Assembly: GCF_000003195.3 (NCBI RefSeq)
Contig: NC_012870.2
Location: 48,672,967 to 48,736,966, forward strand
Direction of reading: 5' to 3'
DNA: 64,000 bases
Origin: Sorghum bicolor
Taxonomy: Eukaryota; Streptophyta; Magnoliopsida; Poales; Poaceae
Under the pieces are notes generated by a model that worked only from the letters and a program-made list of their open reading frames with translations, was not told the origin of the DNA and did no database searches. Both the position numbers and the translations under genes were made by a program. Of the stretch, positions 1 to 63,448 are shown in pieces (position 1 is the stretch's first letter; each line of letters starts with the position of its first letter).

Positions 1-75
1 ATGAAGGAGATAGAAGAGGCCAATCAGATCCGTCTGCGCGCCATATCGACGATCCAGGCTCTGTTAAACATGTGA
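1..75 (+). CDS. 3' end of antisense PMD/coiled-coil gene of element A1 (partial)
   Basis: The window opens inside an exon that encodes 24 more residues and stops with TGA at 73-75. The residues (KEIEEANQIRLRAIS and following) align closely with the C-terminus of the antisense gene at 58834-62121 in the intact copy (KEIEAANQIRLLAIS). The strand is opposite to A1 gag-pol, as in A2. This shows that the antisense gene is a fixed part of the family and not a one-off capture. The upstream exons lie outside the window, so whether this copy is still intact cannot be judged. Confidence 0.85.
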   Translation: MKEIEEANQIRLRAISTIQALLNM

Positions 76-126
76 ACTCTTCATCGGCGGCGTGCTTTGC
101 TTCTTTCTTCTAATCATTTTGGTCCA

Positions 127-214
127 GCCGATAGGACTGTTATCGGCATCCTTTTAAAACATTAAGTCTGTCCCCAGATACACTTTTAATTCAGCCGATA
201 GGAATGTTATCGGC
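127..214. repeat. Twin hairpins between convergent genes of A1
   Basis: There are two copies of a perfect 7-bp inverted repeat, GCCGATA - 7 nt - TATCGGC, at 127-147 and 194-214. They lie in the gap between the antisense stop (75) and the end of pol (225). The same pair occurs at the same place in A2 (58691-58711 and 58760-58780). The stem is identical in all four hairpins while the loops vary. The role is unknown; 3'-end formation for the convergent transcripts is one possibility. Confidence 0.8.
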
Positions 215-224
215 ACTTAAACTT

Positions 225-3200: not shown

Positions 3201-3458
3201 TGGCCGAAATCCAGACTTGATGGGTAACCGATGTTCAACAATCGATCGGTCCAAACCAGGCATCTCAGTATAATCCCAAGCAAAGCAATCTTTATATTCC
3301 TTTAACAAATTGGTTAACTGCTGCTTACACTCAGAATTTAACTTAGCACTAATAAAAGTAGGTCTAGGCTTATCACCACTACCTATATCTACCTCTACCA
3401 AATCATCGGCCAATGTGAACCCCTGGCCTAATTTTCCATCATCGGCGAACCTATTCAT
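225..3458 (-). pseudogene. pol of A1: reverse transcriptase, RNase H, integrase (broken)
   Basis: The reading frame starts with ATG at 3458, which overlaps the gag stop by one base (TAATG), exactly as in the intact copy. The order is reverse transcriptase (FMDGNAGYNQIFMAEEDIP, YIDDVVV), a first RNase H, a second archaeal-type RNase H (FFDGSTCDRGAGIGIVL, NNQAKYQALIKGL), then integrase with an HHCC zinc-binding region and catalytic motifs (IDLIGQIY, TTDQGTMF, GQAEASNKG). Premature stops lie at about 1452 (after the RNase H), 843 (inside the integrase catalytic core) and 588 (integrase C-terminal part). The long first piece of 668 codons is still open, but no complete Pol can be made. Confidence 0.92.
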
Positions 3459-6400
3459 TAAAACTCCTCATCAGAACCGACTGCTTGGATCGGTGGAATT
3501 TCATAATCGGCAACTTTGACGAAATCCTTCTCCCAAATCTCTCCCGAGAGACACCTAGTTCTTTCATAGGTATCGGCCTCTGCCGATGCAATGACATAAG
3601 AAGAATCCCCCGGGACAATCTCAATCTTGTACCTACCCACTAAACCAAGCAATGGTGCATTGTAGACGGGATGCAACAATTGGCATGAATCCAATCTCTC
3701 CCTAGCAGCAAATTATAAGCACCTTTTCCACTGATCACAAAGAAAGTTGTCGGCAAGGTTTTGCTGTCGATGGTCAACTCGACGCAGATTGCCCCCTTAA
3801 CCGGAGATACATTTCCTTCAAAATCCTTTAGCATCATATCGGTCTTGGTCAAATCCTGATCTCCCTTTCCAAGCTTCCGATGAACTGCATATGGCATGAT
3901 GTTGATAGCAGCCCCACCATCAATTAATATCTTAGTCATCGGCTGACCATCAACTCTTCCTTTGACAAACAGAGCTTTAAGATGCTACCTTTCATTGTCG
4001 GCAGGCTTCTCAAAGATAGCTGTCATCGGATCTAGAGCCAACTGAGCTATCTGGTCGGAAAACTCCAACTCCTCATCATCACTGGATGGCGCAAGGAACT
4101 CCATCAGCAACATAAATACCAAGTTGACATCTGCCGATGGTCCCTTTCCCTTTGGGTCCTGCTGTTGCTGATCCCCAGACTGGCCAGAGTTCTCGCCCTT
4201 GCTTAGCTCTTCTCGTCTTTTACGTTGCAGTCTCCTTTTTTGTGTCTTGGTCAACCCCTCTGGACACCATGGGGGAAGTGGTGACTGCCTTGCCGATAGA
4301 CGATGATGTTCCCTTGACTACATCCGATAAGTATTAGCATCCCTGCAAAATACGAACTCATTGGGAACTCGTGCATTAGCCATATCTTCAAGCTCCTCCT
4401 GGTTCCTAGGAAAATATTGAACACGATCACCAAGCCTATCGTGCACACTGAGTCTGCCCCCCAGCCAATCCTGAACTGACGCTCTCCCCCTAATCGGTCC
4501 ATTAAATCGCCGATCATCTTCGTGATAGCACCAATCGGATCTGTCATATCGATCATAACCATTGCACTCAGGGCAATCTCTAACAGTGGGTAATTTAATG
4601 TTCTGCTCCCAGCAATGGATAAAGAACGGATAGTTCCAGTGATCTTTGTACCGATTCCACTCCTGTCGGTGTCTTTCTTCTTCCCGACGATAGTCTTCTT
4701 GCTGGCGCCGATACCGATCATCACGTTGCTGCCAAGTCTCCCGAGGCCTTCTATGCATTATCACAATACCAGATCGGGGAGGCCTTCCCGAGTTAGTTCC
4801 CTCTTGGATCAAGCCTTTTCCTTTGGCATCGGTAGCAGTGATTTGATGCTGAGGATCTACCGATGCACTCCTTTCAGCTGCCTCCGACGTCAAGACCTTG
4901 GTCTTTCCCTTAGCATCCAACATATTTGTTGGGAAAGGATGTTGATTGATCTTCATCGGCTTCTGAGCTTTGGAACTATCAAATTTGATTCTCCCAGATT
5001 CAATAGCCGATTGCAGTTGTTGTCTAAAAACCTTGCACTCATGGGTGCTGTGAGAAGTTGTATTGTGCCACTTGCAGTATTTCATCTTCTTTAATTCTTC
5101 GGTCGATGGAATAACATGATTAAGCGACAACTTGATCTGGCCTTCCTGAAGTAGAAAGTCGAATATCCTATCGGCTTTGGTGATATCAAATGCAAACTTT
5201 TCTGGCTCTTTATGCCCAAAAGGGCAAGACATCGGCTTCTTATTTTTTACCCATTCTGCCAAGCCGATGACTGGCTCCTCATCAGAATCCGAGCTTGTTG
5301 CTTCATCTACAAATGACACCTTTTTGTTCCAAGCTCTCTTAGGTTCAAAGGGTTTGATATCCTGGTCGAAGATCCTCTGGACCAAGTGACTTAAGCTTTC
5401 GAACTCTTGAGAAGCATACTTGTCCCTGATATGTGGCAACAAACCCTGGAAAGCTAAATCGGCTAGCTGTCAATCGTCCAAAACCAGACTATAGCACTTG
5501 TTCTTAACTTCTCGCAATCTCTGCACGAAGCTTTCAACCGATTCATCATTGTGTTGCTTCAATCTGACCAAATCGGTGATCTTCTTCTCATGGACTCCAG
5601 AAAAGAAGTACTTGTGGAACTGTTTCTCTAGATCGGCCTAAGTGATTACTGAGTTGGGAGGTAACGAAATAAATCAGGTAAAAGCCGATCCAGACAAAGA
5701 TGACGAGAATGACGTATCATCCTGTCCAGAAAATTTAGTAAAATCGGGTACATTGTACCGATTTGGCAGTGGAATCAAGTCGTATGCAGGAGGATACGGT
5801 GTCCAATAAGAGTAAGTGTTGACTTTGGGTTTTATCCCGAATTGGTCCCTCATTACATCAGCAATGTTATCGGCCCAATAAGCATCGGCATCTTGCCGAT
5901 GAGGCGGTTGCGGATCTGGCACCTGCTGATATGCTTCCACGTGTCTGTGCGGTGCATGATCTGCATGGAACATTGGGTTAATCATCTGACCACCAATCTG
6001 CTGGCCACTAATCTGTTGACCACCAATCTGTTGGCTACCAATCTGCTGGCCAAGATTGATCGGCTGGTTGGCCAATCCTTGATTCTGGAACCTAGGTTGG
6101 CCCTGTTGAAACCCTGGAACTTGATGATTCTGTTGAAGCATCTGTTGAAAGACTAACTGCCCGGTCCATCCACTATTAGGATTTATCGGCATAGGCCCTA
6201 CCGATGACTGGTAATTGGGCATCATCATCGAATTGACATACCCTGGCTGAGTCATAAACCTCTGTTGCGTCGGCATTGAATCTGCCGATGCATTAGGCAT
6301 CTGGAATGTTGGAGCTTGAGAATTCCCAGTGTAAGGTCGTGCAGTAGTAGTTGTAGTATACTGGGGACTCTGATTTATCGGCAAATTTGGGAGTGCCGAT

Positions 6401-7041
6401 GCCATAGGAGCCTTGCCTCTCATATCAGCCGTCTGAGATGTGCCAAGCGTCTTCAACATCATCTCTGGGGGCATACCATAACCCCACCAGTTGGGAGGAA
6501 CGGCCCCCGACATTGCCGATGCCAATAGATCTGTGGCAAGCTTGATTCGCTCATCTGAAGTTGCTGGATTGGTTGTCATCGGCGTAGATTGCACATCAGT
6601 GAGTCCTAATGTGCTTGGAGGAGCGGTGGTCTCTGTGCCCGCAGCGGCCGTAGTAGCCGATGGAGCTGTGACAACTGGTGATCCTGCCTGATGATAGACA
6701 GGGCCCACATAATTTGGTGGCAATTGTCCTTCTTTGAAAGTTCTAGCCACGGCATTGAAAACCGTATTGGACAGCACACCAGCTTGATTGATCAAGGTAC
6801 GGTTAATCGCACTATCAACCATGTCTTGAAGTTTACTAGGATTTGCATCAAAAGTAACCTACCGAGGAGCCGGCGGTGCTTCTTTCTGGATTACTTCGCC
6901 ACTCCTATTGATGCTGAAGGACTTCAAACATTGTTGCTTGTAATCCTCCATGGCTTTTGCAATAGCTTGCTTCTGCTCATCTTTGAGATTAGCTTCCGTC
7001 ACGGGGATGACGTTCTACAAGTCGAACTCAGTAGTCGACAT
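3458..7041 (-). pseudogene. gag-protease of A1 (broken)
   Basis: The start is the ATG at 7041, homologous to the start at 51803 in A2. Visible parts are a Gln/Pro/Gly-rich N-terminal half, the Gag core, a CX2HX4HX4C knuckle, an Arg/Glu-rich stretch and a protease domain with the active-site motif LIDGGAAINIMP near 3925. Compared with A2 it has in-frame stops near 7017, at 6859-6861, 5674-5676, 5638-5640, 5470-5472, 4318-4320, 3985-3987 and 3640-3642. It also has a 1-base deletion just after the last of these, and it lacks 25 codons of the Gag core near 5700. Several of the stops are single C-to-T or G-to-A changes (CAG to TAG, TGG to TAG or TGA). Confidence 0.92.
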
Positions 7042-7087
7042 GTCGATCTTGATCCTGAATCTGTCCCACTGGGCATGCCAAAAGATG

Positions 7088-7798
7088 TGTTGATGCAAAA
7101 GCTGATCTGCAAACACAAAGGGCTAATACCCGATTCAAACGTTAAGGCGTGCCAGCCGATTTGACCTTACTATCGGCAAAGGTGATAACTCGAATACTTT
7201 GGTCCCGACAACAGCGATGCGCCCAGATGTCATGGCCAAGAGGTATTCACACAAAACTCGAGAATACGCCGAGCTTAAGTCGACGAACTCCTAAGAACTC
7301 ATAATAAAAGGAAAATTTGACGAAGTCGTCAAAAAAGTAGATGCTGGAATATGAGTAAAAATTTATGTTTGATTGATTGATAGATATATTATTACAAGGC
7401 CCTAGGGTCTACATTTATACCCTGCTCGAAGAGCTACAATCAGACACGACTAGGACTCAAATTCTTAAACGGAGTCCGTATACAAAACGACACTAAATAA
7501 CTAAGGAAAACATAAAACTATCTCCTTGTAACCGACCGGGACACCGCCACAAATCAATCGGCAATCTTCATGGTTTCCTTCAGAGTCATCAGCAATCTCC
7601 CTGTTATGGCCATCGGCAAACACCGATATTGATCATCGGTAAGAATACGTCACCACCCCTGGACTTAGTCACATTCAATCGCCTCTTCATCGGCAACTAT
7701 CCTCATCGGCAACTCTTCTGCAGACTAATTACTGTTGCTCCACCTGCCGATCTATACTGCACTGGTCCCCGGGTACGTGTCCAAAAACGGTGTCAACA
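7088..7798 (-). repeat. 5' LTR of A1 (711 bp)
   Basis: On the minus strand it starts TGTTGACACCGTTTTTGG and ends GCATCAACA, matching the 688-bp LTRs of A2 at both ends. The sequence next to its end (7063-7087) reads, on the minus strand, TTTTGGCATGCCCAGT. This corresponds to the primer-binding region TTTTGGCACGCCCAGTGGG of A2 with one change. Confidence 0.9.
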
Positions 7799-49800: not shown

Positions 49801-49975
49801 TTACTGTATAGTACTGTTTAGCTGACATACTGACTTCTATCTCAATTTGTTGGCCTGAAGGTGTCATTAACTGAACTGTTTTGCTATCACATTGAATAAC
49901 TGCCTTTCTCTGTTTCAACCATTCCATACCCAAGATAACATCAATACCAGAAGTTTTCAAAACCACTGGGCTAAC
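46859..49975 (-). pseudogene. pol of F: protease end, reverse transcriptase, RNase H, integrase, chromodomain-like (broken)
   Basis: In order from the right: the protease C-terminal part (IDVILGMEWLKQ), TGA at 49766-49768, reverse transcriptase ([21 protein letters not shown] where YIDD/FIDD is usual) to 48941, then RNase H ([35 protein letters not shown]). TAG at 48212-48214 is followed by integrase (MDFIVGLPRTQKGYDSIWVI, SDRGTQFTS, YHPQTDGQTERTNQ) and a chromodomain-like end (CKIQWNRHSKDEATLEREDD). One inserted base near 48948 and one deleted base near 48830 shift the frame and restore it. The two stops lie in the same frame as their neighbours, so they are simple nonsense changes. Confidence 0.9.
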
Positions 49976-51063
49976 TATAAACTGTACCCCCTTAAGGTGA
50001 TGTTCACTAGAGGGCATCTAAGGGTAGCTTGCATTTCTGCTCTAGGTGAGCTAACTATCATGGAATTTTTCATAGCAATCATGGGTATATCATATTTCTT
50101 GACAAATGACTGAGCAATAAAGGAATGTGATGCCCCGAAATCAAATAAAATTGTAGCGGGGCTGGAGTTAACTGGAAACATACCGAGCATCACGTCAGGT
50201 GCCTCCTGTGCCGCCTCGGCTGTCACATGATTTACCCTTCCTCTGACATTGTTCTGTGCCATCTTCTTGGGGCACCTATTGGAGTAATGTCCTGGTTCAC
50301 CACAGCTGTAGCATTTCTTATCATTGTTAGCATTTGGTGCTTTTGGTGCACCATTCTTTGGTGGAGCATTGGGAACATTTGTCTTTACTGGAGCATTATT
50401 GACTGGCTGCTGACGTTGGTTAGGAGCTCTGTACTGCTGCTGCTGCTCCTGTGCACGTTGTGGTTGTTGATTACAATTGATCAGACTTGACTGACCCTGA
50501 TAATGTTGCTGTGGATAAGCTTGCTGGGGATTGGTACGTGTACGTGTGTTGTTTCCTGACTGTTGTCCTTGAAACTTCCTTTTCTTATCTTCCATCTGAC
50601 GGCATTTGTTTTCAATCACCAAGGCCTTGTCTACCAGATACTAAAAAGTTGCAAAAGTGTGGGATAGCAGTTGATACTGGAGCCCATCATTCAGACCTTC
50701 CATGAATAGTTCTTGCCTCTTCTCATCATTTTCCACTTCAGTGGGAGCATATCGTGACAATTGTATGAACTTGTCACGATATTCTGCAACAGACATACCA
50801 CCTTGCTTGAGGGAGAGAAATTCCTTCTTTTTCAATTTCATTAGCCCAGCAGGGACATGATGAGAGCGGAAAGCATTACGGAACTCCATCCAGGTTATGG
50901 GGTCAGCATCTGTACGACCAAAATGGAATGAATCCCACCAATCAAGTGTAGCCCCTTGCAGTTGCCCTGCTGCATACAACACTTTCTCTCTGTCATCACA
51001 CTGTGCAATCTCCAATTGTCTTTCAATAGCACGAAGCCAGTCATTAGCTTCGAGAGGGTCGGT
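49975..51063 (-). pseudogene. gag and protease start of F, left of the A2 insertion (broken)
   Basis: It starts inside the Gag core (TDPLEANDWLRAIERQLE, ITWMEFRNAFRSHHVP). TAG at 50641-50643 interrupts it, followed by KCRQMEDKKRKFQGQQ, a Gln/Asn-rich stretch and a CCHC knuckle (CYSCGEPGHYSNRC). The protease start has DFGASHSFI as its active-site segment. The frame is lost near 49990 by loss of one G in a run of G. The N-terminal part of the same gene is at 63449-63655. Confidence 0.9.
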
Positions 51064-51068
51064 GGAGT

Positions 51069-51756
51069 TGTTGACACCATTTTTGGGCACGTGTCTAGGA
51101 TGGCAGGATAGGGTGGCAGTACGATGCGGGTTGCTGATGAGGATGGTTGCCGATGAGGGAGAGGTTGAATGTGACTAAGTCCACAGGCAGTAATATGGTG
51201 CCGATGACTGGATAAAAAGGTCTGCCGATGACTATGGCAAGGGGATTGCCGATGATGCGAAGGAGGAGTCCGGAAGCTGCCAGTTGTCATGTGGAGGAGT
51301 TTCGGTTTGTCACGAAGGATAGTTTTATTATTTCCTTAATTATTTGCATCGTTTTGTATACGGATTCCGTGTAATTTGGAATTCGAATTCTAATCGTGTC
51401 TGGTTGTAGCTCTTTGAGCAGGGTATAAATATAAACCCTAGGACCTTGTAATAATGAATCAAGAAATCAATCAAACACACGTTTTTACTCATATTCCAGC
51501 ATCTACTTTTCGACGACTTCGTCATACTTTTTTCTTTTTATTACGAGTTCTTAGGAATTCGTCGACTTAAGCTCGGCGTGTTCTCGAGTTCCGCGTGAGT
51601 ACCTCTTAGCCGTGACATCCGGGCGCATCGCTGTTGTCAGGACTAAAGTATTCGAGTTATCACCTTTGCCGATAGCAAGGTCAAATCGGCTGGCACGCCT
51701 TAACGTTTGAATCGGGTATTAGCCCTTTGTGTTTGCAGATCAGTTTTGCATCAACA
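51069..51756 (+). repeat. 5' LTR of A2 (688 bp)
   Basis: TGTTGACACC..GCATCAACA. The hexamer GCCGAT or its complement occurs six times. TATAAATA at 51424-51431 is the likely sense promoter. Confidence 0.96.
51424..51431 (+). promoter_or_regulatory. TATA box of sense LTR promoter, A2
   Basis: TATAAATA in the 5' LTR, in the sequence gcagggtataaatataaaccc. It is the only good TATA box in the LTR. The 3' copy is near 63116-63123. Confidence 0.7.
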
Positions 51757-51763
51757 CATCTTT

Positions 51764-51781
51764 TGGCACGCCCAGTGGGAC
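51764..51781 (+). other. Primer-binding site of A2
   Basis: TGGCACGCCCAGTGGGAC lies seven bases after the LTR. It is the expected position for a tRNA primer site. I do not assign the tRNA. Confidence 0.65.
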
Positions 51782-51802
51782 AGATTCAAGATCAAGATCA
51801 AC

Positions 51803-54800
51803 ATGTCGATCTCTGACCTCGATCAAGAGAACGTCATCCCCGTGACGGAGGCCAACCTCAAGGATGAGCAAAAGCAAGCTATTGCCCAAGCCATGGAAGA
51901 GTTCAAGCAGCAATGCCTGAGGTCTTTCAGCATAAACAGGAGCGGCGAAGTGGTCCAGAAAGATGCACTGCCGGCACCACGGCAGGTCACCTTTGACGCC
52001 AATCCTGGCAAGCTTCAAGATATGGTTGACAATGCCATCAATCGAGCGTTGATTAACCAAGCTGGTGTACTGTCTAATACGGTTTTCAACGCCGTGGCAA
52101 GAACTTTCAAGGAAGGACAAATCCCGCCAGATTATGTGGGGCCCTCCCATCATCAGCCAACGGCACCAGAGGTCACGGCTCCATCGGCTGCCTTGACGAA
52201 TGCAAGTGCACAGTCTGCCGTCCCTCCAAGTACATTGGGGACTACTGGTGCACTATCTATGCCGATGGCAACCAACCCACAAATTTCAGTTGGGCAGCAT
52301 AAACTGACAACAGATATGTTGGCATCGGCAATGTCAGGGTTGACTCTTCCTCCCAACTGGTGGGGTTATGGTATGCCTCCAGAGTTGACACCGGGAACAT
52401 CACAAATAACTGACATGAGGGGCAAAACTCCTATGACATCGGCACCTCCCAATGCGCCGGTGAACCAGAGTCCTCGGTATACCACAACTACTACTGCAAG
52501 GCCTCACACTGGGAATCCTCAAGATTCAATGTTTCAGATGCCCAACGCATCGGCAGAGTCAATGCTCATGCAACAGAGGCCTATGGCCCAGTCGGGGTAT
52601 GTCAATTCAACGACGGTACCCAATTACCAATCATCGGCAGCACCTATGCCGATGAACGCTAATAATGGATGGCTTGGACAGCAAGCCTTTCCACAATCGC
52701 CCCAGCATGGTTATCAGACTACAGGGTTCCAGCAAGGACAGGTCTATCCCGGGTTCCAAGGTCAGGGGATTCCCAACCAGCCAATAAATTTTGGACAGCA
52801 ACTCGGAGGACAGCCAATCGGTGGACAGCAGTTTGGTGGTCCGCAGATTGGAGGACAGGTGACCAATACAATGTTCCATGCAGGTCACGTCCCGAACAGA
52901 CACGTGGAGGTTCGCCACCAAGTGCCGGATCCGCAGCCGCCTCATCGGCAAGATGCCGATGCGTATTGGGCCGATAAGATTGCTGAAGTAATGAGGGAAC
53001 AGTTTGGGATAAAACCCAAAGTCAACACTTATTCTTATCGGACACCGTATCCTCCAGCGTATGATTTGATCCCGCTTCCACATCGGTACAAGGTACCGGA
53101 TTTTACAAAGTTTTCCGGACAGGACGACACGTCAACCATGGAGCATGTCAACAGGTTCATTATTCAATGTGGAGAGGCTGGTAACAGGGACGAATTGAGG
53201 GTTCGTCTATTTTCATCATCATTGTCTGGATCGGCCTTTACTTGGTTCATATCATTACCTCCCAACTCAGTAATTACTTGGGCCGATCTAGAGAAGCAAT
53301 TCCACAAATACTTCTTCTCGGGGGTTCATGAGAAGATCACCGACTTGGTCAAGTTGAGGCAACGTAATGATGAGTCGGTTGAGGGATTTGTGCAGAGGAT
53401 ACGAGAGGTCAAGAATAAATGCTATAGCCTGGTTCTGGATGATCGGCAGCTAGCCGATTTGGCTTTCCAGGGTTTGTTGCCACATATCAGGGATAAGTAT
53501 GCCTCTCAGGAGTTCGAAAGTTTAAGTCATTTGGTGCAGAGGATATCTGATCAAGACATCAAGCCTTTCGAGCCTAAGAGGGCATGGAATAAGAAAGTGT
53601 CATTTGTTGATGAAGCAACAAGCTCAGATTCCGATGAGGAACCAGTAATCGGTTTGGCAGAGTGGGTAAAAAACAAGAAGCCGATGTCTTGTCCTTTTGG
53701 GCAGAAGGAACCAGAGAAGTTTGCCTTTGACACCGCCAAGGCCGATAGGATATTTGACTTTCTACTTCAGGAAGGTCAAATCAAACTGTCACCTAACCAC
53801 GTGATCCCATCGGCAGAAGAGTTGAAGAGGATGAGATATTGCAAGTGGCATAATGCAACTTCACATGACACCAACGAGTGCAAAGTATTCAGACAGCAGC
53901 TGCAATCGGCTATAGAGTCAGGGAGAATCAAGTTTGACAGTTCCAAAGCCCAGAAGCCGATGAAGATAGACCAACATCCTTTCCCGACAAACATGTTGGA
54001 TGCTAAGGGGAAGGCTAAGGTCTTAACGTCGGAGACAGCTGAGAAGAGTGCATCGGTAGATCCTCAGCATCAAGTTACTACTGCCGATGCAAGAAGTAAG
54101 GGCTTGGTCCAGGAAGGAACTAGCTCAGGAAGGCTTCCTCGATCTGGTATCGTCATAACTCATAGGAGGCCTCGAGAAAAATGGCAACAACGGGAAGATC
54201 GGTATCGGCGCCAGCAGGAAGATTATCAACGGGAAGAAGAAAGACGCCGACAGGAGTGGAATCGGCACAGGGATCATTGGAATTGCCCATTCTTCATCCA
54301 TTGTTGGGAGGAAAATATCAAGCTTCCTACTGTCAGAGACTGCCCTGAATGCAACGGTTATGATCGGTACGATAGGAACGATCGGCGTTATCATGATGAT
54401 GAACGGCGAGCTAATGGGCCGATCAGAGGAAGGGTGTCAGTTCATGACCGGCTGGGGGGCAGATTCAGTGGGCACAACAGACTCAGTGACCGTGTCCAGT
54501 ATTTTCCCAGGAACCAAGAGGAGCTCGAAGGAATGGCTGATGCGCGGGTTCCCGATGAATTCATATTTTGTAGGGATGCTAACACGCATCGCATGGAGTC
54601 AAGGGAGAACCGACGCCCGACGGCAAGGCAAAGGCCACTTCCTCCATGGTGCCCTCGAGGATTAACCAAGACACAGAAAAGGAGATTGCAACGAGAAAGG
54701 CAAGAGGAGCTAAACAAGGGAGAGAACTCTGGAAGTCGGCAGCCGTCAGACACTAAGAGGGAAGGTCCATCGGCAGGCGTCAACATGGTCTTCATGTTGC

Positions 54801-55447
54801 CGATGGAGTTTCTTGCACCAGCCAGTGACGATGAGTTGGAATTTTCTGATCAGATAGCTCAGTTGGCTCTGGATCCGATGACGGCTATCTTTGAGAAACC
54901 TGCCGATGACGAGAGGCAGCATCTTAAAGCTTTGTTCCTCAAAGGAAGGGTTGATGGGCAGCCAATGACCAAGATCCTAGTTGATGGTGGAGCTGCTATT
55001 AATATTATGCCGTATGCAGTATATCGGAAGCTTGGGAAAGGGGATCAAGATTTGACCAAGACCGATATGATGCTCAAAGACTTTGAAGGAAACGTGTCTC
55101 CAGTCAAGGGGGCGATATGTGCAGAGTTGACCATCGGCAGCAAAACCTTGCCGACAACTTTTTTCGTGATCAGCGGAAAAGGTGCCTACAATTTATTATT
55201 GGGGAGAGATTGGATTCATGCCAATTGTTGTGTCCCATCTACAATGCATCAGTGCTTGGTTCAGTGGGTAGGTGACAAGATTGAGATCGTCCCAGGAGAT
55301 TCTTCTTATGTTATCGCATCGGCAGAAGCGGATACTTACGAAAGGACCAGGTGCATTTCAGGAGAAGTTTGGGAGAAAGATTTTCTCAAAGTTGCCGATT
55401 ATGAGATTCCACCGATCCAAGCAGTCGGTTCTGACGACGGTTTTTAA
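51803..55447 (+). CDS. gag: Gag-protease polyprotein of A2 (1214 residues, intact)
   Basis: The structural Gag protein and the aspartic protease are in one frame. I chose the ATG at 51803 (MSISDLDQENVIP) because it is the first ATG after the primer site and is conserved in A1. Residues 1-430 are rich in Gln, Pro, Gly and Asn, with a GGQ/IGGQ repeat near 330-355. The Gag core is at about 440-570 (SALSGSAFTWFISLPP-like, DLEKQFHKYFFSG, FVQRIREVKNKC). A knuckle of the unusual form CX2HX4HX4C (CKWHNATSHDTNEC) is near 678. A highly charged Arg/Glu stretch is at about 785-835. The protease is at about 1050-1180 with active-site segment LVDGGAAINIMP (DGG instead of DTG/DSG), and LLLGRDWIH follows. 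It has no internal stop. It ends in TAATG, overlapping the pol ATG. Confidence 0.95.
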   Translation: MSISDLDQENVIPVTEANLKDEQKQAIAQAMEEFKQQCLRSFSINRSGEVVQKDALPAPRQVTFDANPGKLQDMVDNAINRALINQAGVLSNTVFNAVARTFKEGQIPPDYVGPSHHQPTAPEVTAPSAALTNASAQSAVPPSTLGTTGALSMPMATNPQISVGQHKLTTDMLASAMSGLTLPPNWWGYGMPPELTPGTSQITDMRGKTPMTSAPPNAPVNQSPRYTTTTTARPHTGNPQDSMFQMPNASAESMLMQQRPMAQSGYVNSTTVPNYQSSAAPMPMNANNGWLGQQAFPQSPQHGYQTTGFQQGQVYPGFQGQGIPNQPINFGQQLGGQPIGGQQFGGPQIGGQVTNTMFHAGHVPNRHVEVRHQVPDPQPPHRQDADAYWADKIAEVMREQFGIKPKVNTYSYRTPYPPAYDLIPLPHRYKVPDFTKFSGQDDTSTMEHVNRFIIQCGEAGNRDELRVRLFSSSLSGSAFTWFISLPPNSVITWADLEKQFHKYFFSGVHEKITDLVKLRQRNDESVEGFVQRIREVKNKCYSLVLDDRQLADLAFQGLLPHIRDKYASQEFESLSHLVQRISDQDIKPFEPKRAWNKKVSFVDEATSSDSDEEPVIGLAEWVKNKKPMSCPFGQKEPEKFAFDTAKADRIFDFLLQEGQIKLSPNHVIPSAEELKRMRYCKWHNATSHDTNECKVFRQQLQSAIESGRIKFDSSKAQKPMKIDQHPFPTNMLDAKGKAKVLTSETAEKSASVDPQHQVTTADARSKGLVQEGTSSGRLPRSGIVITHRRPREKWQQREDRYRRQQEDYQREEERRRQEWNRHRDHWNCPFFIHCWEENIKLPTVRDCPECNGYDRYDRNDRRYHDDERRANGPIRGRVSVHDRLGGRFSGHNRLSDRVQYFPRNQEELEGMADARVPDEFIFCRDANTHRMESRENRRPTARQRPLPPWCPRGLTKTQKRRLQRERQEELNKGENSGSRQPSDTKREGPSAGVNMVFMLPMEFLAPASDDELEFSDQIAQLALDPMTAIFEKPADDERQHLKALFLKGRVDGQPMTKILVDGGAAINIMPYAVYRKLGKGDQDLTKTDMMLKDFEGNVSPVKGAICAELTIGSKTLPTTFFVISGKGAYNLLLGRDWIHANCCVPSTMHQCLVQWVGDKIEIVPGDSSYVIASAEADTYERTRCISGEVWEKDFLKVADYEIPPIQAVGSDDGF

Positions 55448-58400
55448 TGGATAGATTCGCCGATGATGGAAAATTAGGCCAGGGATTCACATCGGCCGAT
55501 GATTTGGTAGAAGTAGATATAGGTAGTGGTGATAAGCCTAGGCCTACTTTTATTAGTGCTAAATTAGATCCTGAGTGTAAGCGACAATTGATTAGTTTGT
55601 TAAGGGAATATAAAGATTGCTTTGCTTGGGATTATACAGAGATGCCTGGTTTAGACCGATCAATTGTCGAACATCGGTTACCCATTAAGTCTGGATTTCG
55701 GCCACATCAGCAACCAGCCCGCCGATGTAATCCTAACATTCTACCTGATATTAAGGCCGAAATCACTAAACTTATTGAAGCTAAGTTTATTCGGCAGTGT
55801 CGGTATGCCGAATGGATTTCCAATGTTGTTCCGGTTTACAAGAAGAACGGGAAGCTTCGGGTGTGCATTGATTTCAGGAATCTCAATAAAGCTACACCGA
55901 TGGATGGATACCCAATGCCTGTCGCCGATCTACTGGTTGATGCTGCGGCTGGCCATCGGGTCATCAGCTTCATGGATGGTAATGCAGGTTACAATCAAAT
56001 ATTCATGGCAGAGGAGGATATTCCAAAAACCGCATTCAGGTGTCCTGGTCATGTTGGACTATTTGAATGGATAGTCATGACTTTTGGGTTAAAGAATGCT
56101 GGTGCTACTTATCAAAGGGCTATGAATTTTATATTTCATGAGTTCATCGGCAAGCTCGTAGAGATTTATATTGATGATGTGGTGGTTAAGTCTGGAGATT
56201 TCTCAAAGCATCTTGCCGATTTACGAAAAGTGTTGGAGTGCACAAGGAAGCATGGATTGAAGATGAATCCCAACAAGTGTGCATTTGGCGTATCGGCAGG
56301 GCAGTTTCTTGGTTTCATGGTACATCAGAGGGGTATTGAAATTAGTCGAAGATCTATTGATGCCATCAATAAAATAGTGGCCCCTACCAATAAAACCGAG
56401 CTCCAATCCTTGATCGGCAAGGTGAATTTTATCAGAAGATTTATATCGAATTTAACTGGGAGGATTCGTGCTTTCAGTCCTCTTCTTAAATTGAAAGCCG
56501 ATCAAGAGTTTGTTTGGGGAGAAGAACAGCAGTTGGCTCTGGATGAAATCAAGAAGTATCTAGTAAATCCTCCAGTTTTAGTTCCACCTCAACAAGGGAA
56601 GCCCTTCAAATTGTATTTATCTACCGATGGATCGGTTATCGGTTCAGCTTTAGTTCAAGAATTTGAAGGGAAAGAGAGGGTAATTTATTATTTGAGTAGG
56701 AGGTTGATTGATGCTGAAACCAGGTATTCGGCCATTGAGAAACTGTGCTTATGCTTATATTTTTCATGTATCAAGCTGAGACATTACCTGTTATCGGCCG
56801 AATGTGCTGTGGTTTGCAAAGATGACGTGGTCCGATACATGCTATCTATGCCGATTATGAGTGGTAGGATCGGTAAATGGATTTTAGCGCTGTCGGAGTT
56901 CGATTTGCATTACGAATCGGCTAAGGCAGTCAAAGGGCAGATTATGGCCGACTTTGTGACTCAGCATTGCGGTCTAATGGAAACCTTGGAAATTGCACCC
57001 TGGACGCTCTTCTTTGATGGATCTACCTGTGACCGGGGGGCAGGAATCAGCATTGTATTAGTTTCTCCTAAGGGGAGGAAGTATGAGTTTTCCTTGCCGA
57101 TTGTTGCTACATCAACAAATAATCAGGCTGAGTATCAAGCTCTGATCAAGGGATTGGAGTTGTTAAGAGAAGTTCGTGCTGATGCTGTTGAAATATTCGG
57201 GGATTCTATGTTGGTTATAAATCAATTGGCCGGAAGCTATGAATGCCGAAGTGAAGTTCTCATAACCTATTTCGAGAGAAGTATGCAACTATTAAAGGAA
57301 TTCAAGGACTTCCGATTGGAGCATGTTCCCCGATTGCATAATGAAGACGCTAATCGGTTAGCTCAGCATGCCTCGGGATATCAGCCAATGATTAATGCGA
57401 CATCGACAGTAGGTGCCGGTGATTGGAGGAAAGAAATTATTAATTATCTAAAAGATCCATCCAAAAAAGTTGAAAGACGGGTTCGATTTCAGGCAACCAA
57501 GTATGTGCTCCTTGAAAATGAATTGTATTATCGAACTATCGACGGAATTCTTCTCCGATGCTTGGGTGATGATGAAGCCAGAAGTTTGATGGGGGAAATC
57601 CATGAAGGAGTGTGTGGAGCGCATCAGTCAGCTTTTAAGATGAAGTGGATGATTCGAAGGAATGGATATTTTTGGCCAACCATACTTGAAGATTGTTTTA
57701 AATATTTCAAGGGATGTCAAGGTTGTCAAAAGTTCGGTAATATCCAGAGAGCACCCGCATCGGCTATGAATCCTATAATAAAACCTTGGCCGTTCCGGGG
57801 ATGGGCCATCGATCTGATCGGCCAGATTTATCCACCATCTAGCAAAGGGCATAAGTTCATTCTAGTTGCCACTGACTATTTCACTAAGTGGGTTGAAGCT
57901 ATTCCTTTGAAGAAAGTCACATCGGCCAATATGATTGATTTTGTGAAGGAGCATATTATTTACCGATTTGGGATTCCCCAAACGATTACTACCGATCAGG
58001 GCACCATGTTCACGTCGGGGGAGTTCGATGAATTCGCAATCGGTATGGGAATTAAAGTGTTGAATTCTTCTCCTTATTATGCTCAAGCCAATGGGCAGGC
58101 CGAAGCGTCTAACAAAGGAATTATCAAGCTTATTAAACGAAAGATTGAAGAAAATCCTAGGCGGTGGCATACATCATTAAATGAAGCATTGTGGTCTTAT
58201 CGGATGGCTTGTCATGGATCGACCAAGGTATCACCCTATCAATTGGTGTATGGACATGATGCCGTGTTGCCTTGGGAAATTAAGGCTGGATCTAGGCGAT
58301 TATCTTTTCAAGATCAATTAACTTCCGACAATTATGCCACTTTGATGACCGATGAATTGGATGATCTAGCAGGGCATCGGTTAAAAGCTTTAATGAGTAT

Positions 58401-58680
58401 AGAAGAAAATAAGAAAAGAGTTGCTAGATGGTATGATAAGAAAGTGAAGGCTAAAGAGTTTGTCGATGGGGATTTGGTATGGAAATTAATTTTACCAGTT
58501 GGGACCAAAAGCTCGAAGTTTGGAAAGTGGTCTCCTAATTGGGAGGGTCCTTATCGGATAAGTCGATCGGCTCCTGGTAATGCCTACATTCTAGAAACCC
58601 TCGAAGGAATTGAATTTCCCAGAGCATTAAACGGCAAATATTTAAAGAAGTACTACCCCAGTATATGGGTCGATGCATAA
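55447..58680 (+). CDS. pol: Pol polyprotein of A2: reverse transcriptase, two RNase H, integrase (1077 residues, intact)
   Basis: ATG at 55447 shares its A with the gag stop codon. The frame is -1 relative to gag, so expression needs reinitiation or a frameshift. Reverse transcriptase covers about residues 100-300 with YIDD at 241-244. A classic but divergent RNase H is at about 385-460. A second, archaeal-type RNase H is at about 515-650 (FFDGSTCDRGAG near 522, NNQAEYQALIKGL). The integrase zinc region HX6H..CX2C is at about 719-760. Catalytic residues are D789, D850 and E886, with the last two 35 residues apart. The C-terminal part (KWSPNWEGPYRI) matches the small SH3-like fold usual after integrase; there is no chromodomain. 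Dual RNase H marks the Tat lineage. All catalytic motifs are present and there is no stop. Confidence 0.96.
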   Translation: MDRFADDGKLGQGFTSADDLVEVDIGSGDKPRPTFISAKLDPECKRQLISLLREYKDCFAWDYTEMPGLDRSIVEHRLPIKSGFRPHQQPARRCNPNILPDIKAEITKLIEAKFIRQCRYAEWISNVVPVYKKNGKLRVCIDFRNLNKATPMDGYPMPVADLLVDAAAGHRVISFMDGNAGYNQIFMAEEDIPKTAFRCPGHVGLFEWIVMTFGLKNAGATYQRAMNFIFHEFIGKLVEIYIDDVVVKSGDFSKHLADLRKVLECTRKHGLKMNPNKCAFGVSAGQFLGFMVHQRGIEISRRSIDAINKIVAPTNKTELQSLIGKVNFIRRFISNLTGRIRAFSPLLKLKADQEFVWGEEQQLALDEIKKYLVNPPVLVPPQQGKPFKLYLSTDGSVIGSALVQEFEGKERVIYYLSRRLIDAETRYSAIEKLCLCLYFSCIKLRHYLLSAECAVVCKDDVVRYMLSMPIMSGRIGKWILALSEFDLHYESAKAVKGQIMADFVTQHCGLMETLEIAPWTLFFDGSTCDRGAGISIVLVSPKGRKYEFSLPIVATSTNNQAEYQALIKGLELLREVRADAVEIFGDSMLVINQLAGSYECRSEVLITYFERSMQLLKEFKDFRLEHVPRLHNEDANRLAQHASGYQPMINATSTVGAGDWRKEIINYLKDPSKKVERRVRFQATKYVLLENELYYRTIDGILLRCLGDDEARSLMGEIHEGVCGAHQSAFKMKWMIRRNGYFWPTILEDCFKYFKGCQGCQKFGNIQRAPASAMNPIIKPWPFRGWAIDLIGQIYPPSSKGHKFILVATDYFTKWVEAIPLKKVTSANMIDFVKEHIIYRFGIPQTITTDQGTMFTSGEFDEFAIGMGIKVLNSSPYYAQANGQAEASNKGIIKLIKRKIEENPRRWHTSLNEALWSYRMACHGSTKVSPYQLVYGHDAVLPWEIKAGSRRLSFQDQLTSDNYATLMTDELDDLAGHRLKALMSIEENKKRVARWYDKKVKAKEFVDGDLVWKLILPVGTKSSKFGKWSPNWEGPYRISRSAPGNAYILETLEGIEFPRALNGKYLKKYYPSIWVDA

Positions 58681-58690
58681 AAGTTTAGGT

Positions 58691-58780
58691 GCCGATAACA
58701 CTCCTATCGGCTGGAGCCAAATGCTTGGGGACAGAACTTGGTGTTTCAAAAGTTTAGGCGCCGATAACAGTCCTATCGGC
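58691..58780. repeat. Twin hairpins between pol and the antisense gene of A2
   Basis: GCCGATA - 7 nt - TATCGGC occurs at 58691-58711 and 58760-58780, each inside a longer similar unit (aagtttagg(t/c)gccgataaca(c/g)tcctatcggct), with a spacing of 69 bp. It lies in the 153 bp between two convergent stop codons and is matched in A1 at 127-214. Confidence 0.85.
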
Positions 58781-58833
58781 TAGACTAAAAGTTGAGGAAG
58801 CAGGAAAGCGTAGATACAATGCCGATGGAAACT

Positions 58834-61800
58834 CTATGTGTTAAGCAGCGACTGGATAGCCGATATAGCAAGTAGCCGAATTTGGTTGGCTGCTTCTATC
58901 TCCTTGATGTCATCATCGGCAGAACCTTCTATCGGCTTTAGCTTCTTCTTCAGTTGGAGTGCCTTGCGACCATGAACATTTCGCTCGTGCTCAAGAAGCC
59001 TGATGGTCTCTGGCAATTGGTTCTCTTCCTGTTGGGCTTGGGATAAGGCGTTCTCCACTTCCTTGAGTTCCGCCAACAGGGATTCTCTTCTTGCCGATAG
59101 ATCGGATATCTTCTGCTTCAGCGCATCTCCTGAAGATTTCAGGATACCGATGTTCTTGTGCTTCTCATCGGTCAGGAGTTTCTCTTTCCTCATTTCATCG
59201 GAGAGTTGGGTTTGAGCGGCTCTATCGGCAAGACGCCGAGAAGCTCTCTGGTACTGCAGCTGGCGACTCTCCAGATGAGCGGCTTGGAACAGGATTTCTT
59301 CGACGTCGGCTGGGATTTGGCCTCTGAGAGTTCTGAACAGGGCCTTGGTAGGGTCGGAGTCATCGACCAAATGCGCTGTATCCTGGTGAAGGAGAACTGA
59401 CAATTCTTCCAGCCTGGCCCTGGTCTCTGCCGATGTAATGCCAACTGTCTGGGAAGAACTTGCTTCTTCGCCTTCTTCTTCAGAGAGATCGATGGCGAAG
59501 GAAAACAGGCTATCAGGAGAATCTTGTTCCTGGGAGGGAAAGCAAGGTTAGCTCATATTCGGAGAATCGGCAAATGGTGCTGGCGGTAAACAGTGACTTA
59601 CTTGCTTCAAGGCGATCTCTTGCCTTGGACTGGGAGGTGCTGACGGAGCTACGGACTGACCGGCCAAAAATGCCGATGGAACTGCAGGTTGATCGGCTAA
59701 GGTTGCCGATGGGACGATATCGATTGAAAGAAGACAAGAAAGGTTATGAGACTAAATGAGAATGAGTTCATCGGCAACGGTATTGTTAAAGTATGTTACC
59801 TGGAGGGGGAACAACGGTTGTCTGAATCGGGAGAGCCGCCGGTGATATAATTGGACCCACCGGACCAGTTGCTTGTTCACCCACATCAACTGATGTACTT
59901 TCTGTTTGAGGCTCTTCCTGCTGGGATTCTTCCATCTGTGGTGCATCCTGCATTGGTTGGGGAGATGGCACTTGCTGTGTCTGGACTTCTGGAGAAGAAG
60001 GAGAAGACTCTACTGGGATTGGAGATACCGGAGGAGGAGGGGGAGCTGCCACTTTTTGGCGTTTCGTTTCGGCCCTGGTGCTCTTGACACCCTTCCTCTT
60101 TGGCTGGCTGGACTGGGTGGCATCGGCACCTTGAAGTGTGACCTTTGCCGATGCACTGGTTTGCTGCAATAACGGACAAGGGTTTGTAAGTATAAATAAA
60201 GCCGATATAAAGATAGTCAGCGTAAAAGATAAAGATTTGACAAATTGCCTTGAAAGCCCGCGCCAGAGTAGGAGCAGCTACCGTTGGTGATGTCTGGGTT
60301 CTCCTGGTAGTAACTTTCCTGAGGCGCGCACCCCGATGCACGATGGAAGCCAGAGTGGGAGCATTGTGGCCGATTGAGGAAATCGGTCCTGATGGAAACA
60401 AGTCAATCGGCTTGCCACTCCTGCTAACCAATGGAGGAATATTGTCAACCTGCAAAAGGAATACAAGGGTAAGCTGCCGATAGAAGTAATAGTGAGAAAA
60501 TGAAACGTTAGTTTGAGTTACTTACAGTGTCATCGGGAACTTCGTATTCGGGGTCAATCATGCCGCGGTATGAAAGTGCCGATCTGCAGATTAGATGCTC
60601 TTTCCATTCTGCCCACCATAACTTGTATGCCTGAGTGACGAAAGCAGCCGGAACCCATTCTGACAGATCTACATCTACATCGGCGTTTGGTGGTAGTTGG
60701 GCTACTCGAGTCCACTCAAGAAGGTTGTTGATGGTTTCTCTGGGTTTTATTACATCGGCATAAGGAAGTGCAATCGGCAACTGGCCGAAAGCTAACTGGC
60801 GAGCTAATGCCAATGGATTGTAAAATTCGTAAGTCTGGGGAGAAGTTTTCGTGCTACCGAAGAAATTCACTGGAATGGCTCTGGGAGTCACAATTGCCAT
60901 CATCGCCTCATTGTCCCTGTCGAGAGCTTCATCAAATGGATTGAAGGTCAGAGGGAGCATGCTATCTGGGTCATCATAAGCCAGCCATGGTCGTTCATCT
61001 CTAGCTAGACCCTCATACAGAGTCTCGAAGAATCGGCCGATCTGATCCGGATTGTTCCCTGAACCGGGTAAGACTATAACGGCTTTGCCAAAGTTCAAGG
61101 GGGCACGCGTTGCCGATTCCTCTTCACCCAACACATGATTTTCGGCTATATCTCTTGGGAAGTACTGTGAGAACAAGTTGAAATCAAGGCGCTTATGCAG
61201 GTGCAGATTGAGCCACATATTAATAAACCACCAGGGGCCTCCCAAGTTGCCGATGGATTGGCCAAGCAGGAGTTTCTGGGCTACCTGATGAAGAAGGTGG
61301 TAAATGGCGCTGAGCAAATATCGGCCGAGAGGAAATTGGCCACCGTTAGCCAGTCTTTCTGCTGCCGATAGATAGACAGAAGTCGGTCCTGCCGATCGAC
61401 CACAGAATACAAACTTGTCCAGCCACATGTTTAGAAAGGTGGTTTGCTCCTTTATGGTGACAGGCCCTCTCCCGCGGTACTTCTGGATGTACCCCGACCA
61501 ACCGCCGATAGCGCGAGTCTCCACTTTGGCACTGGGGGCAGTATCAAAGAAGTGGGTGCTATCGGCAGAAGATATATCTAGCCCACTGAGCATGGCTACA
61601 TCGGCAAGGGTAGGAGAAGCAGGGCCGTGGCCAAAAACAAAAGCATTGAGAGTGTCTGACCAAAAGTAGGATGCAGCTATCAGCAGTGACTCGTTCCTGT
61701 GCATATCGGCAATGGATAGCCTAATGCATTGGGCTAGCTTCCTCTCACCCCACTGGACTTCATAAGAATTGCTGACCCTCAAGAACCAGTCTTTCCACCC

Positions 61801-62121
61801 TACGGTAGGGCTGGGCCAAGAGCGAAAAGTGTCTTTCCATAGATCTACAGAAAAGTTTTCAGCCCTAAAGGGGATTCTATTGGTTTTTGCGTTGATAAGA
61901 TTGGTTGGATCTGAATCCCCTAGAGGACCGAGACATTGAAGGTGTGGTTGATCGGTGGGGATGACAATTTTATTGGACAACTCCTAGTGATTTTGGGGGA
62001 ATAAAAATACAAAGAAAAAGGAAAAGGGGAATATTCAGTAAGATGAATCGCGGATGAATAGGAATATACACAGAAGATGAGATGGAAGTCTGACCTCAGG
62101 GACGACGAAGCCAATGGCCAT
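58834..62121 (-). CDS. Antisense plant-mobile-domain / coiled-coil protein of A2, six exons
   Basis: The exons (minus strand) are 62121-62095, 61983-60526, 60449-60249, 60163-59800, 59696-59602 and 59529-58834. Their sum is 2841 nt, or 946 residues plus stop, and all junctions keep the frame. Introns are 72-111 nt; four are GT-AG and one (60248-60164) is GC-AG. Exon 2 holds a plant mobile domain (PMD), about residues 40-440, recognised by WKDWFLRVSNSYEVQWGE, FVFGHGPASPTLADVAMLSG and GGPWWFINMWLNLHL. Exons 3-5 give a Pro/Ser/Gln-rich linker with a basic nuclear-localisation-like stretch (PKRKGVKSTRAETKRQK, about 583-599). Exon 6 gives an acidic patch and a long coiled coil (about 790-925). PMD proteins include plant MAIN/MAIL1 and transposon-borne relatives. 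The role here is unknown. The first donor (GAG/GTCAGA) is the weakest call. A TATA box lies upstream. Confidence 0.83.
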
Positions 62122-62270
62122 CTTGTCGTGAAGAGGACGTTGGAGGGCACCGGAGTTGATGAAGAGGAGTGCTTGTCGGAGATCTTGAAGGTTGTAAATG
62201 GCGCCGCCGCTGGAAAAGCAAAGTTGGATAGTAGAATGGTGTAATGGGGGAGGAGTACCCAAGAAGGAAC

Positions 62271-62278
62271 TATTTATA
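62271..62278 (-). promoter_or_regulatory. TATA box of the antisense gene, A2
   Basis: The minus strand reads CCTATAAATAGTTCC. It lies about 150 bases upstream of the ATG at 62121, which leaves a 5' leader of about 120 nt if transcription starts 30 bases downstream. No ATG occurs in that leader. Confidence 0.65.
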
Positions 62279-62437
62279 GGACAAGATGGGCAAGGGCAAA
62301 TCCGACTTATCTCTTTGCCGCATCCGAGAAGCCCGAGGGTACTCAGGTGGATATGGTAACTGTTCGCACGGTAATCCAGAGATTGTGCAGGTGATTTGAC
62401 GGGAAGCGGTCATTATCTGAAGATATTTTACTGTGCG

Positions 62438-62580
62438 AGATCTCCTGGTCGGTCCATCGGCGATATTCTATAACGGTCATCTTGCCGATGGGCGGATAGA
62501 GGGGAGGTAACCGTTTTTGCGAATATCCTGGTCAGAGCATCGGCAGATCTTTGTAACGGTATTGTTGCCGATGTACGACC
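62438..62580. repeat. Imperfect tandem module upstream of the antisense promoter
   Basis: Two related units begin near 62441 (ctcctggtcggtccatcggc) and 62524 (atcctggtcagagcatcggc). Each continues through a taacggt(c/a)(a/t)t motif to ttgccgatg. Each unit holds ATCGGC and GCCGAT facing each other about 30 bases apart. Confidence 0.65.
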
Positions 62581-62746
62581 AAGAAAGATGCCCGTTTAGG
62601 AAGTTGGGGATTTCGAGGAATCTGCGGAGGATTAGGATCAGAGTTGTCCAGATTGAGGTTGTCGGTTACCAAATTAGGAGCATTAATTGCGGAGAAGGCA
62701 TCATTACTGCAGAGAATTTCGGAGCATTAATAGTTTTATACTCCGA

Positions 62747-62760
62747 AACTGGGGGGCATG
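62747..62760 (+). other. Polypurine tract of A2
   Basis: AACTGGGGGGCATG directly abuts the 3' LTR. Confidence 0.75.
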
Positions 62761-63448
62761 TGTTGACACCATTTTTGGGCACGTGTCTAGGATGGCAGGA
62801 TAGGGTGGCAGTACGATGCGGGTTGCTGATGAGGATGGTTGCCGATGAGGGAGAGGTTGAATGTGACTAAGTCCACAGGCAGTAATATGGTGCCGATGGC
62901 TGGATAACAAGGTCTGCCGATGACTATGGCAAGGGGATTGCCGATGATGCGAAGGAGGAGTCCGGAAGCTGCCAGTTGTCATGTGGAGGAGTTTCGGTTT
63001 GTCACGAAGGATAGTTTTATTATTTCCTTAATTATTTGCATCGTTTTGTATACGGATTCCGTGTAATTTGGAATTCGAATTCTAATCGTGTCTGGTTGTA
63101 GCTCTTTGAGCAGGGTATAAATATAAACCCTAGGACCTTGTAATAATGAATCAAGAAATCAATCAAACACACGTTTTTACTCATATTCCAGCATCTACTT
63201 TTCGACGACTTCGTCATACCTTTTTCTTTTTATTACGAGTTCTTAGGAATTCGTCGACTTAAGCTCGGCGTGTTCTCGAGTTCCGCGTGAGTACCTCTTA
63301 GCCGTGACATCCGGGCGCATCGCTGTTGTCAGGACTAAAGTATTCGAGTTATCACCTTTGCCGATAGCAAGGTCAAATCGGCTGGCACGCCTTAACGTTT
63401 GAATCGGGTATTAGCCCTTTGTGTTTGCAGATCAGTTTTGCATCAACA
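62761..63448 (+). repeat. 3' LTR of A2 (688 bp)
   Basis: It is identical to the 5' LTR except for three substitutions by hand comparison: A/G in gccgat(a/g)gctgg-like context, A/C in gataa(a/c)aagg context, and T/C near gtcatac(t/c)tttt. Confidence 0.96.

What the first reader, a model, noticed from the sequence alone, without database searches (positions are those of the whole stretch)
58834..62278. A spliced PMD/coiled-coil gene carried antisense inside an intact retrotransposon
The 4 kb between pol and the 3' LTR of A2 reads, on the minus strand, as a complete gene. It has a TATA box at 62278-62271, six exons whose five junctions all keep the frame, a plant mobile domain, a basic nuclear-targeting-like stretch and a long coiled coil. 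Extra and antisense ORFs are known in plant Tat-type Ty3/Gypsy elements, and PMD proteins (MAIN/MAIL1) have been linked to transposon silencing and development. A young element retaining such a gene unbroken suggests that it helps the element, for instance by interfering with host silencing or chromatin targeting. That role is my inference.
Basis: partly seen in the sequence, partly recalled or inferred. Interest (0 to 1): 0.88.

Follow-up and report, generated by a model that had tools for sequence, protein, structure and literature searches.

The report
Jumping gene's reverse-strand gene and address word
A young plant jumping gene carries on its opposite strand a real, intron-containing gene for a nuclear-type protein, and the whole element is sprinkled with one six-letter DNA word kept by selection, which may be the address tag this or another protein reads to recognise the element.

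Summary
The minus strand of 58834-62278 reads as a six-exon, 946-aa gene inside an intact LTR retrotransposon (LTRs 51069-51756 and 62761-63448, 3/688 differences, 5-bp target-site duplication). One intron is GC-AG; two related families have GT there. The protein has a plant mobile domain (E=6e-16), a basic NLS-like stretch and a predicted 123-residue helix. Against a sister family dN/dS is 0.116 (gag 0.095, pol 0.054), with all five splice sites and the TATA box kept. PMD genes in Ty3/gypsy elements and antisense extra genes in Tat elements are already published.

The unexpected part is the DNA. The hexamer ATCGGC occurs 101 times in 12.4 kb (5.5 expected), on both strands, in LTRs, gag, pol, exons and introns; most one-mismatch words are near expectation. 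It is conserved between families above matched controls, also at synonymous sites (116/124 against 1480/2357). A family with a different antisense gene (TRP28) is enriched for another word, CGACCA, with clearly weaker support. Best explanation: the antisense protein reads its family's word to find its own copies and counter silencing, as VANC proteins do for VANDAL transposons. Binding, splicing and silencing effects are untested.

The parts
51069..51756 (+). 5' LTR, 688 bp, TG...CA; 6 copies of ATCGGC/GCCGAT
51707..55447 (+). gag-protease ORF (Retrotrans_gag, gag-asp_proteas); listed from the first TTG, so it overlaps the LTR end
55447..58680 (+). pol ORF: RT, RNase H, second RNase-H-like domain (RVT_3), integrase
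58834..62121 (-). antisense six-exon gene, 946 aa
   Evidence: dN/dS
62095..62121 (-). exon 1
60526..61983 (-). exon 2 (486 aa, holds the PMD)
61192..61731 (-). plant mobile domain, residues 94-273
60249..60449 (-). exon 3
60164..60248 (-). intron 3, GC-AG here, GT donor in two related families
59800..60163 (-). exon 4
60050..60100 (-). basic NLS-like stretch, residues 584-600
59602..59696 (-). exon 5
58834..59529 (-). exon 6 with stop
58942..59310 (-). long predicted helix, probably a coiled coil, residues 789-911
62271..62278 (-). TATA box TATAAATA, kept in 28 of 29 copies and in the sister family
58681..58833 (.). spacer between pol and the antisense gene; 5 copies of the word in 153 bp
62761..63448 (+). 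3' LTR; direct flank GGAGT repeats the 5' flank
51069..63448 (.). 101 dispersed copies of ATCGGC/GCCGAT (preferred form CATCGGCA) on both strands
1..7713 (-). gag-pol and LTR part of an older sister-family element (80-85% identical) with the same word; its antisense gene lies outside the window (L039)

Best explanation
A functional accessory gene of a Tat-lineage Ty3/gypsy retrotransposon. It is transcribed from its own TATA promoter, against gag-pol, and spliced into a mRNA for a nuclear protein with a plant mobile domain, a basic linker and a long coiled coil. The coiled coil lets it form oligomers. One part of the protein or complex recognises the family's DNA word, (C)ATCGGC(A), which occurs about every 120 bp throughout the element. 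By binding many sites at once it marks the element's own integrated copies and opposes their silencing, as VANC does for VANDAL transposons. Shown: gene structure in the DNA, selection on the protein, dispersal of the word and selection on it. Inferred: transcription and splicing, nuclear location, oligomerisation, binding of the word, and the anti-silencing effect.
For: Protein: PMD; dN/dS 0.116 against the sister family, 0.257 pooled over 28 copies; conserved TATA, ATG and splice sites between families; long helix. Word: 101 against 5.5 expected; of 18 one-mismatch words only ATCGGT (25 v 5.0) and TTCGGC (12 v 5.4) are clearly raised; none of 300 order-2 Markov simulations had any hexamer as frequent in gag, pol or the pol-3'LTR region. 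Strands about equal outside the LTRs; enriched in every part of the element. Conserved from A2 to the sister at 57 of 86 aligned sites against 80 of 338 CpG-centred control hexamers, and to a third family at 14 of 32 against 14 of 163. Synonymous third positions identical in 116 of 124 inside words, 1480 of 2357 outside. All six loci of related PMD families examined (L039, L061-L065; exon 2 about 65-93% identical) have this top word. A diverged family (pol 33% identical) with TRP28 is enriched for CGACCA. Close pairs of CATCGGCA: 12,800 in the genome against 23 for the reversed pattern (this also reflects copy number). VANC precedent: PMC5735166, passages read.
Against: No binding, expression or methylation data. 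The modelled exon-2 region (mean pLDDT 66) matched no solved fold at E<=0.001, so structure gives no hint of DNA binding. VANC motifs lie mainly in non-coding tandem repeats; these are dispersed and also in coding DNA. Thirteen other PMD loci of this genome (L001-L008, L040-L044; L041 is a MULE) show 0-4 copies of the word. In pol the word ranks only 8th of 34 hexamers by conservation; [quoted passage not shown] For the TRP28 word: conservation mixed, synonymous test negative (18/21 v 557/775, p=0.12; 24/35 v 717/1055, p=0.55), genome-wide pairs not above control, and in L051 without its array the word is not among the top six. Genic PMD proteins MAIN and MAIL1 act in silencing transposons, not in protecting them (PMC5418596 passages).
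Confidence: 0.42

Rival explanations
1. The antisense protein reads the word but works as a transcription activator or enhancer factor of the element, like retroviral Tat or Tax, rather than by removing silencing marks.
For: LTRs hold 6 words each, three of them at 24-bp spacing. Antisense genes of maize Grande and Retand are proposed to be regulators (PMC7264820 and PMC11963269, parts read).
Against: Activator sites would be expected in LTRs and promoters, not spread through pol and exons under synonymous selection.
Confidence: 0.15
2. The protein coats the element's linear cDNA through the words and helps compaction, nuclear import or integration.
For: Words cover the whole element on both strands; the protein has an NLS-like stretch and a long helix.
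Against: A coat could act without sequence specificity; nothing links the protein to particles or integrase.
Confidence: 0.1
3. A host protein or another element-encoded protein reads the word, and the antisense gene does something else.
For: Nothing ties word to protein physically; PMD loci outside this group lack the word.
Against: Related PMD families share one word while a TRP28 family is enriched for another; the word is kept even at synonymous sites. Gag and pol differ between these families too, so this does not single out the antisense protein.
Confidence: 0.22
4. The gene or its antisense RNA restrains the element (self-limitation through a repressor or double-stranded RNA).
For: MAIN and MAIL1 act in silencing; antisense RNA regulation was proposed by Vicient and Casacuberta 2020.
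Against: Purifying selection on the amino-acid sequence is not explained by RNA alone; at least 88 closely similar exon-2 copies exist, so the element has not been held to few copies.
Confidence: 0.08
5. Chance or compositional artefact: the ORFs and the word have no function.
For: Only the negative results for the TRP28 word and for word conservation in LTR and non-coding parts.
Against: dN/dS, splice sites kept between families, word counts and word conservation.
Confidence: 0.03

Closest known systems
Antisense extra genes (aORF-3R/eORF-3'R) of Tat elements: Grande gene23, RIRE2, Retand ORF4
   Same: Antisense, between pol and 3' LTR; own promoter and nuclear protein reported for Grande (review, parts 1 and 2 read)
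   Different: Here PMD; TRP28 (PF04195), typical of Retand, was tested and not found; six exons with splice sites kept between families; only one weak 15-bp tandem repeat, in gag
PMD-A proteins of Ty3/gypsy elements; PMD reported in 57% of Ogre elements
   Same: PF10536 in a Gypsy element; rice relatives P0091 and P0098 carry PMD, P0098 is named Ty3-gypsy
   Different: Those rice proteins also carry DUF1409, not found here; exon structure and dispersed word not described in what I read; clade by RT tree not tested
VANC proteins and motifs of VANDAL (MULE) transposons
   Same: Element-specific short DNA word at high density, element-encoded accessory protein, different words in different families (PMC5735166 passages)
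   Different: LTR retrotransposon, PMD protein, words dispersed on both strands and in coding DNA; binding and demethylation unproven here
Arabidopsis MAIN/MAIL1 with the DOWN motif
   Same: PMD; a promoter DNA motif is linked to their function (PMC7156037 passages)
   Different: Host genes needed for silencing and for expression of a gene set; the motif's letters were not seen or compared with ATCGGC

Membership tests
LTR retrotransposon, Ty3/gypsy | Paired LTRs, target-site duplication, gag, PR, RT, RH, integrase after RT | tested here: met
Tat lineage | Second RNase H between RH and integrase (Ogre and Retand position) | tested here: met
   (RVT_3 at 523-642, RH at 384-485, integrase zinc domain from 710); defining feature read
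Retand clade | TRP28 (PF04195) in an antisense gene, 97% of clusters in PMC11963269 | tested here: not met
Ogre clade | PMD in extra ORF (reported in 57%; not a strict criterion) | tested here: met
Ogre or Retand clade | Position in RT/RH/INT phylogeny | not tested
   no reference set was aligned
PMD family PF10536 | Score above curated cut-off | tested here: met
   59 against 34.9 bits
VANC-type anti-silencing system | High density of a short element-specific motif | tested here: met
VANC-type anti-silencing system | Motif mainly in tandem repeats of non-coding DNA | tested here: not met
   the TRP28 family has a 70-bp array holding its word
VANC-type anti-silencing system | Protein binds motif and causes DNA methylation loss | not testable with these tools
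   needs experiments
VANC protein family | Sequence homology to VANC | not tested
   no VANC sequence was compared

The most novel reading that the evidence does not exclude
Tat retrotransposons carry an address code. Each lineage keeps its own short DNA word scattered through coding and non-coding DNA, held by selection even at synonymous sites, and the protein of its antisense gene (PMD or TRP28) reads that word to act on the element's own copies. This would be an LTR-retrotransposon counterpart, of separate origin, to VANC/VANDAL anti-silencing, and would explain antisense genes whose role is unknown.
Probability: 0.38. Interest if true: 0.92.

Novelty: new variant of a known kind. Interest (0 to 1): 0.72.

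Why it matters
Antisense genes of plant Tat elements are known without a known function. A selected DNA word shared by a group of related families gives a concrete ligand to test. If the protein reads it, a second class of transposons uses sequence-specific self-recognition, and plant mobile domain proteins of the host, which take part in transposon silencing, would have relatives with a defined DNA target.

Tried and rejected
Word clusters CACCGGACG (L042) and CGGGAC (L041) next to other PMD genes looked like further family words. Two other copies of each (L055-L058) lack the clusters and share no homology there, so they belong to neighbouring repeats. L054 was fetched as a TRP28 pol copy but gave no blast match to L053; its comparison was dropped. 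L066, chosen from a word pair in the genome list, holds another gypsy element without the word. Viral contigs gave no confirmed relative. The PDB by sequence gave one insignificant row and by fold no match at E<=0.001. A dipeptide count hinting at the same word in rice relatives is too weak to use, because the proteins are homologous. A search for remoter PMD families with rice protein P0098 did not complete. Literature: 10 searches, of which I saw listings and then parts of six papers, showed no report of a dispersed word in Tat elements; only open-licence PMC papers are held, so this is not proof.

Full report
The element. The window lies in a 709-Mb assembly. The retrotransposon spans 51069-63448: LTRs of 688 bp with 3 mismatches, flanks GGAGT on both sides, open gag-PR and pol frames of 1246 and 1077 aa. 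The domain order RT, RNase H, a second RNase-H-like domain, integrase is that of the Tat lineage (defining feature read in PMC6317226). At a rate of 1.3e-8 per site and year (recalled), 0.44% LTR divergence means roughly 0.2 million years.

The antisense gene. One correction: intron 3 is GC-AG. A sister family and a third family carry GT at that place, which supports rather than weakens the model. TATAAATA at 62278-62271 is kept in 28 of 29 other copies and in the sister, the ATG in 29 of 29. Pfam finds PMD at residues 94-273 (59 bits, cut-off 34.9) and no TRP28 or DUF1409 at E<=1. Exon 6 is modelled with one 123-residue helix, best in its middle (pLDDT block means 90-97 for about residues 806-905; alignment of 2 sequences, pTM 0.32). 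Residues 584-600 are a basic NLS-like stretch. A search with the whole protein returned 3 relatives; the closest, the Miscanthus model P0001, is 55% identical over 91%. P0001 and P0002 run through junctions 2/3 and 3/4, and P0002 through 5/6; P0001 lacks about 14 residues just before that junction.

Selection on the protein. Against the sister family (73.5% DNA identity in this region) 907 codons give dN 0.150, dS 1.29 and ratio 0.116. PMD gives 0.09, the C-terminal part 0.085, the linker 0.212, gag 0.095, pol 0.054; dS is near saturation, and for residues 1-93 beyond it. For exon 2 the six offsets used as control, on both strands, gave 0.29 to 2.05; gapped columns were removed there, so these frames drift, and the lowest value comes from the offset that starts in the gene's own frame. 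The sister copy holds 6 stop codons among the compared codons of this gene (9 in gag, 4 in pol). Over 28 copies against A2 the pooled ratio is 0.257 with 23 stops; 18 of the 28 keep all five splice-site pairs, and the other 10 differ or have a gap at one or two introns, 7 of them at intron 4 (L024 was not oriented by that script). The copies examined are 29 of the 88 matches listed (A2 itself is one of the 88), the best-scoring of 5682 candidates, so they are biased to intact copies. Of those 88, 76 have no stop in exon 2 (my count).

The word. ATCGGC/GCCGAT occurs 101 times in the element against 5.5 expected from dinucleotides. Of the 18 one-mismatch words ATCGGT (25 v 5.0) and TTCGGC (12 v 5.4) are clearly raised; the others lie near expectation or, for ATAGGC, below it. 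The preferred form is CATCGGCA, 52 in the window against 1.1 in shuffles. It is enriched in every part: LTR 6 each, gag 30, pol 18, exons 26, introns 5, spacer 5, region before the 3' LTR 4. Outside the LTRs the strands are balanced; within an LTR 5 of 6 point one way. Median spacing is 71 bp. In gag, pol and the pol-3'LTR region 0 of 300 order-2 Markov simulations had any hexamer as frequent. Of the window's sixteen 4-kb blocks five have this word as top hexamer; they cover the sister element and most of this one, while block 48001-52000, with under 1 kb of the element, does not. A chromovirus-like stretch, a 19-23 kb stretch, L041 and L066 were negative controls with 0-1 copies. In the genome, close pairs of CATCGGCA number 12,800 against 23 for the reversed pattern; many of these are copies of the same LTR sites.

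Selection on the word. From A2 to the sister family the word is unchanged at 20 of 30 (gag), 13 of 18 (pol), 4 of 6 (LTR) and 20 of 32 (pol-3'LTR) aligned sites: 57 of 86. Hexamers with CG at the same place are unchanged at 80 of 338. In the LTR alone the difference is not convincing (4/6 v 13/29). A stricter control (one CpG, four G+C) gives one-sided p of 7e-7 in gag, 6e-3 in pol and 5e-6 in pol-3'LTR. Ranked by conservation among hexamers with at least 7 aligned copies, the word is 2nd of 28, 8th of 34 and 4th of 26. Swapped words (ATCGGC in the TRP28 family, CGACCA here) show no significant effect, with 0 to 6 sites each. Third codon positions with conserved amino acid are identical in 116 of 124 inside words and 1480 of 2357 outside (p=6e-15). 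Codon choice favours the word: of Ala-Asp pairs, GCCGAT is used in 8 of 10 (gag), 5 of 7 (pol) and 9 of 10 (antisense gene), with 2.2, 1.9 and 2.6 expected. [quoted passage not shown] A third family, L065, keeps 14 of 32 against 14 of 163. Among 29 copies motif CpGs differ from A2 at 28 of 2331, other CpGs at 437 of 9089.

Other families. Related PMD families with exon 2 about 65-93% identical have the same top word in each of the six loci examined (L039, L061-L064; L065). Thirteen other PMD loci (L001-L008, L040-L044) hold 0-4 copies. In a TRP28 family of the same genome (PF04195 in its antisense ORF; pol 33% identical to A2) the top word in three pol pieces is CGACCA: 25, 16 (tied with CTGGTC in count) and 19 copies, with about 5 expected in simulations; 0, 1 and 2 of 300 simulations had any hexamer as frequent. 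The word also sits in a 70-bp tandem array near the antisense gene. Support is weaker: in the antisense region outside the array 7 of 9 and 7 of 7 sites are kept against about 45% of controls, but in pol the four comparisons gave p of 0.086, 8e-4, 0.59 and 7e-3; the synonymous test is negative; genome-wide pairs do not exceed the reversed control (824+918 v 835+826); and in L051 without its array the word is not among the top six.

Interpretation. A word on both strands, in coding and non-coding parts alike and held at synonymous sites, points to a protein that reads double-stranded DNA of integrated copies or cDNA. The best-known parallel is VANC, whose families use different short motifs at high density and lose DNA methylation on their own copies (PMC5735166, passages). 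The antisense PMD protein is the natural candidate reader here, but that link is inference. Gag, pol or a host factor are not excluded.

What was known. PMD in Ty3/gypsy elements (PMC5418596, passages; [quoted passage not shown] PMC11963269, abstract, passages and part 1 of section 11), are in print. The 2020 review asks for attention to antisense and spliced transcripts. In the ten searches listed under Tried and rejected I saw no description of this exon structure or of dispersed words.

Noticed in passing
46859-51068: The element is inserted in a minus-strand chromovirus-like gag-pol, judged from ORF content only.
   Followed up: no
1-7713 and L039: A second, older element of a sister family with the same word lies at the window start; its antisense gene is broken.
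   Followed up: yes
L042:590-981: CACCGGACG occurs 16 times on both strands within 400 bp, in a repeat that is not part of the neighbouring PMD element.
   Followed up: partly
L041:1-211: CGGGAC occurs 8 times in about 210 bp beside a PMD-carrying MULE, not shared by two other copies.
   Followed up: partly
51149-51253 and the matching 3' LTR: Four words in the LTR lie in one orientation, three of them exactly 24 bp apart.
   Followed up: no
P0001: The Miscanthus model P0001 (name includes isoform X2) lacks about 14 residues before junction 5/6 that P0002 has; alternative splicing is possible.
   Followed up: no
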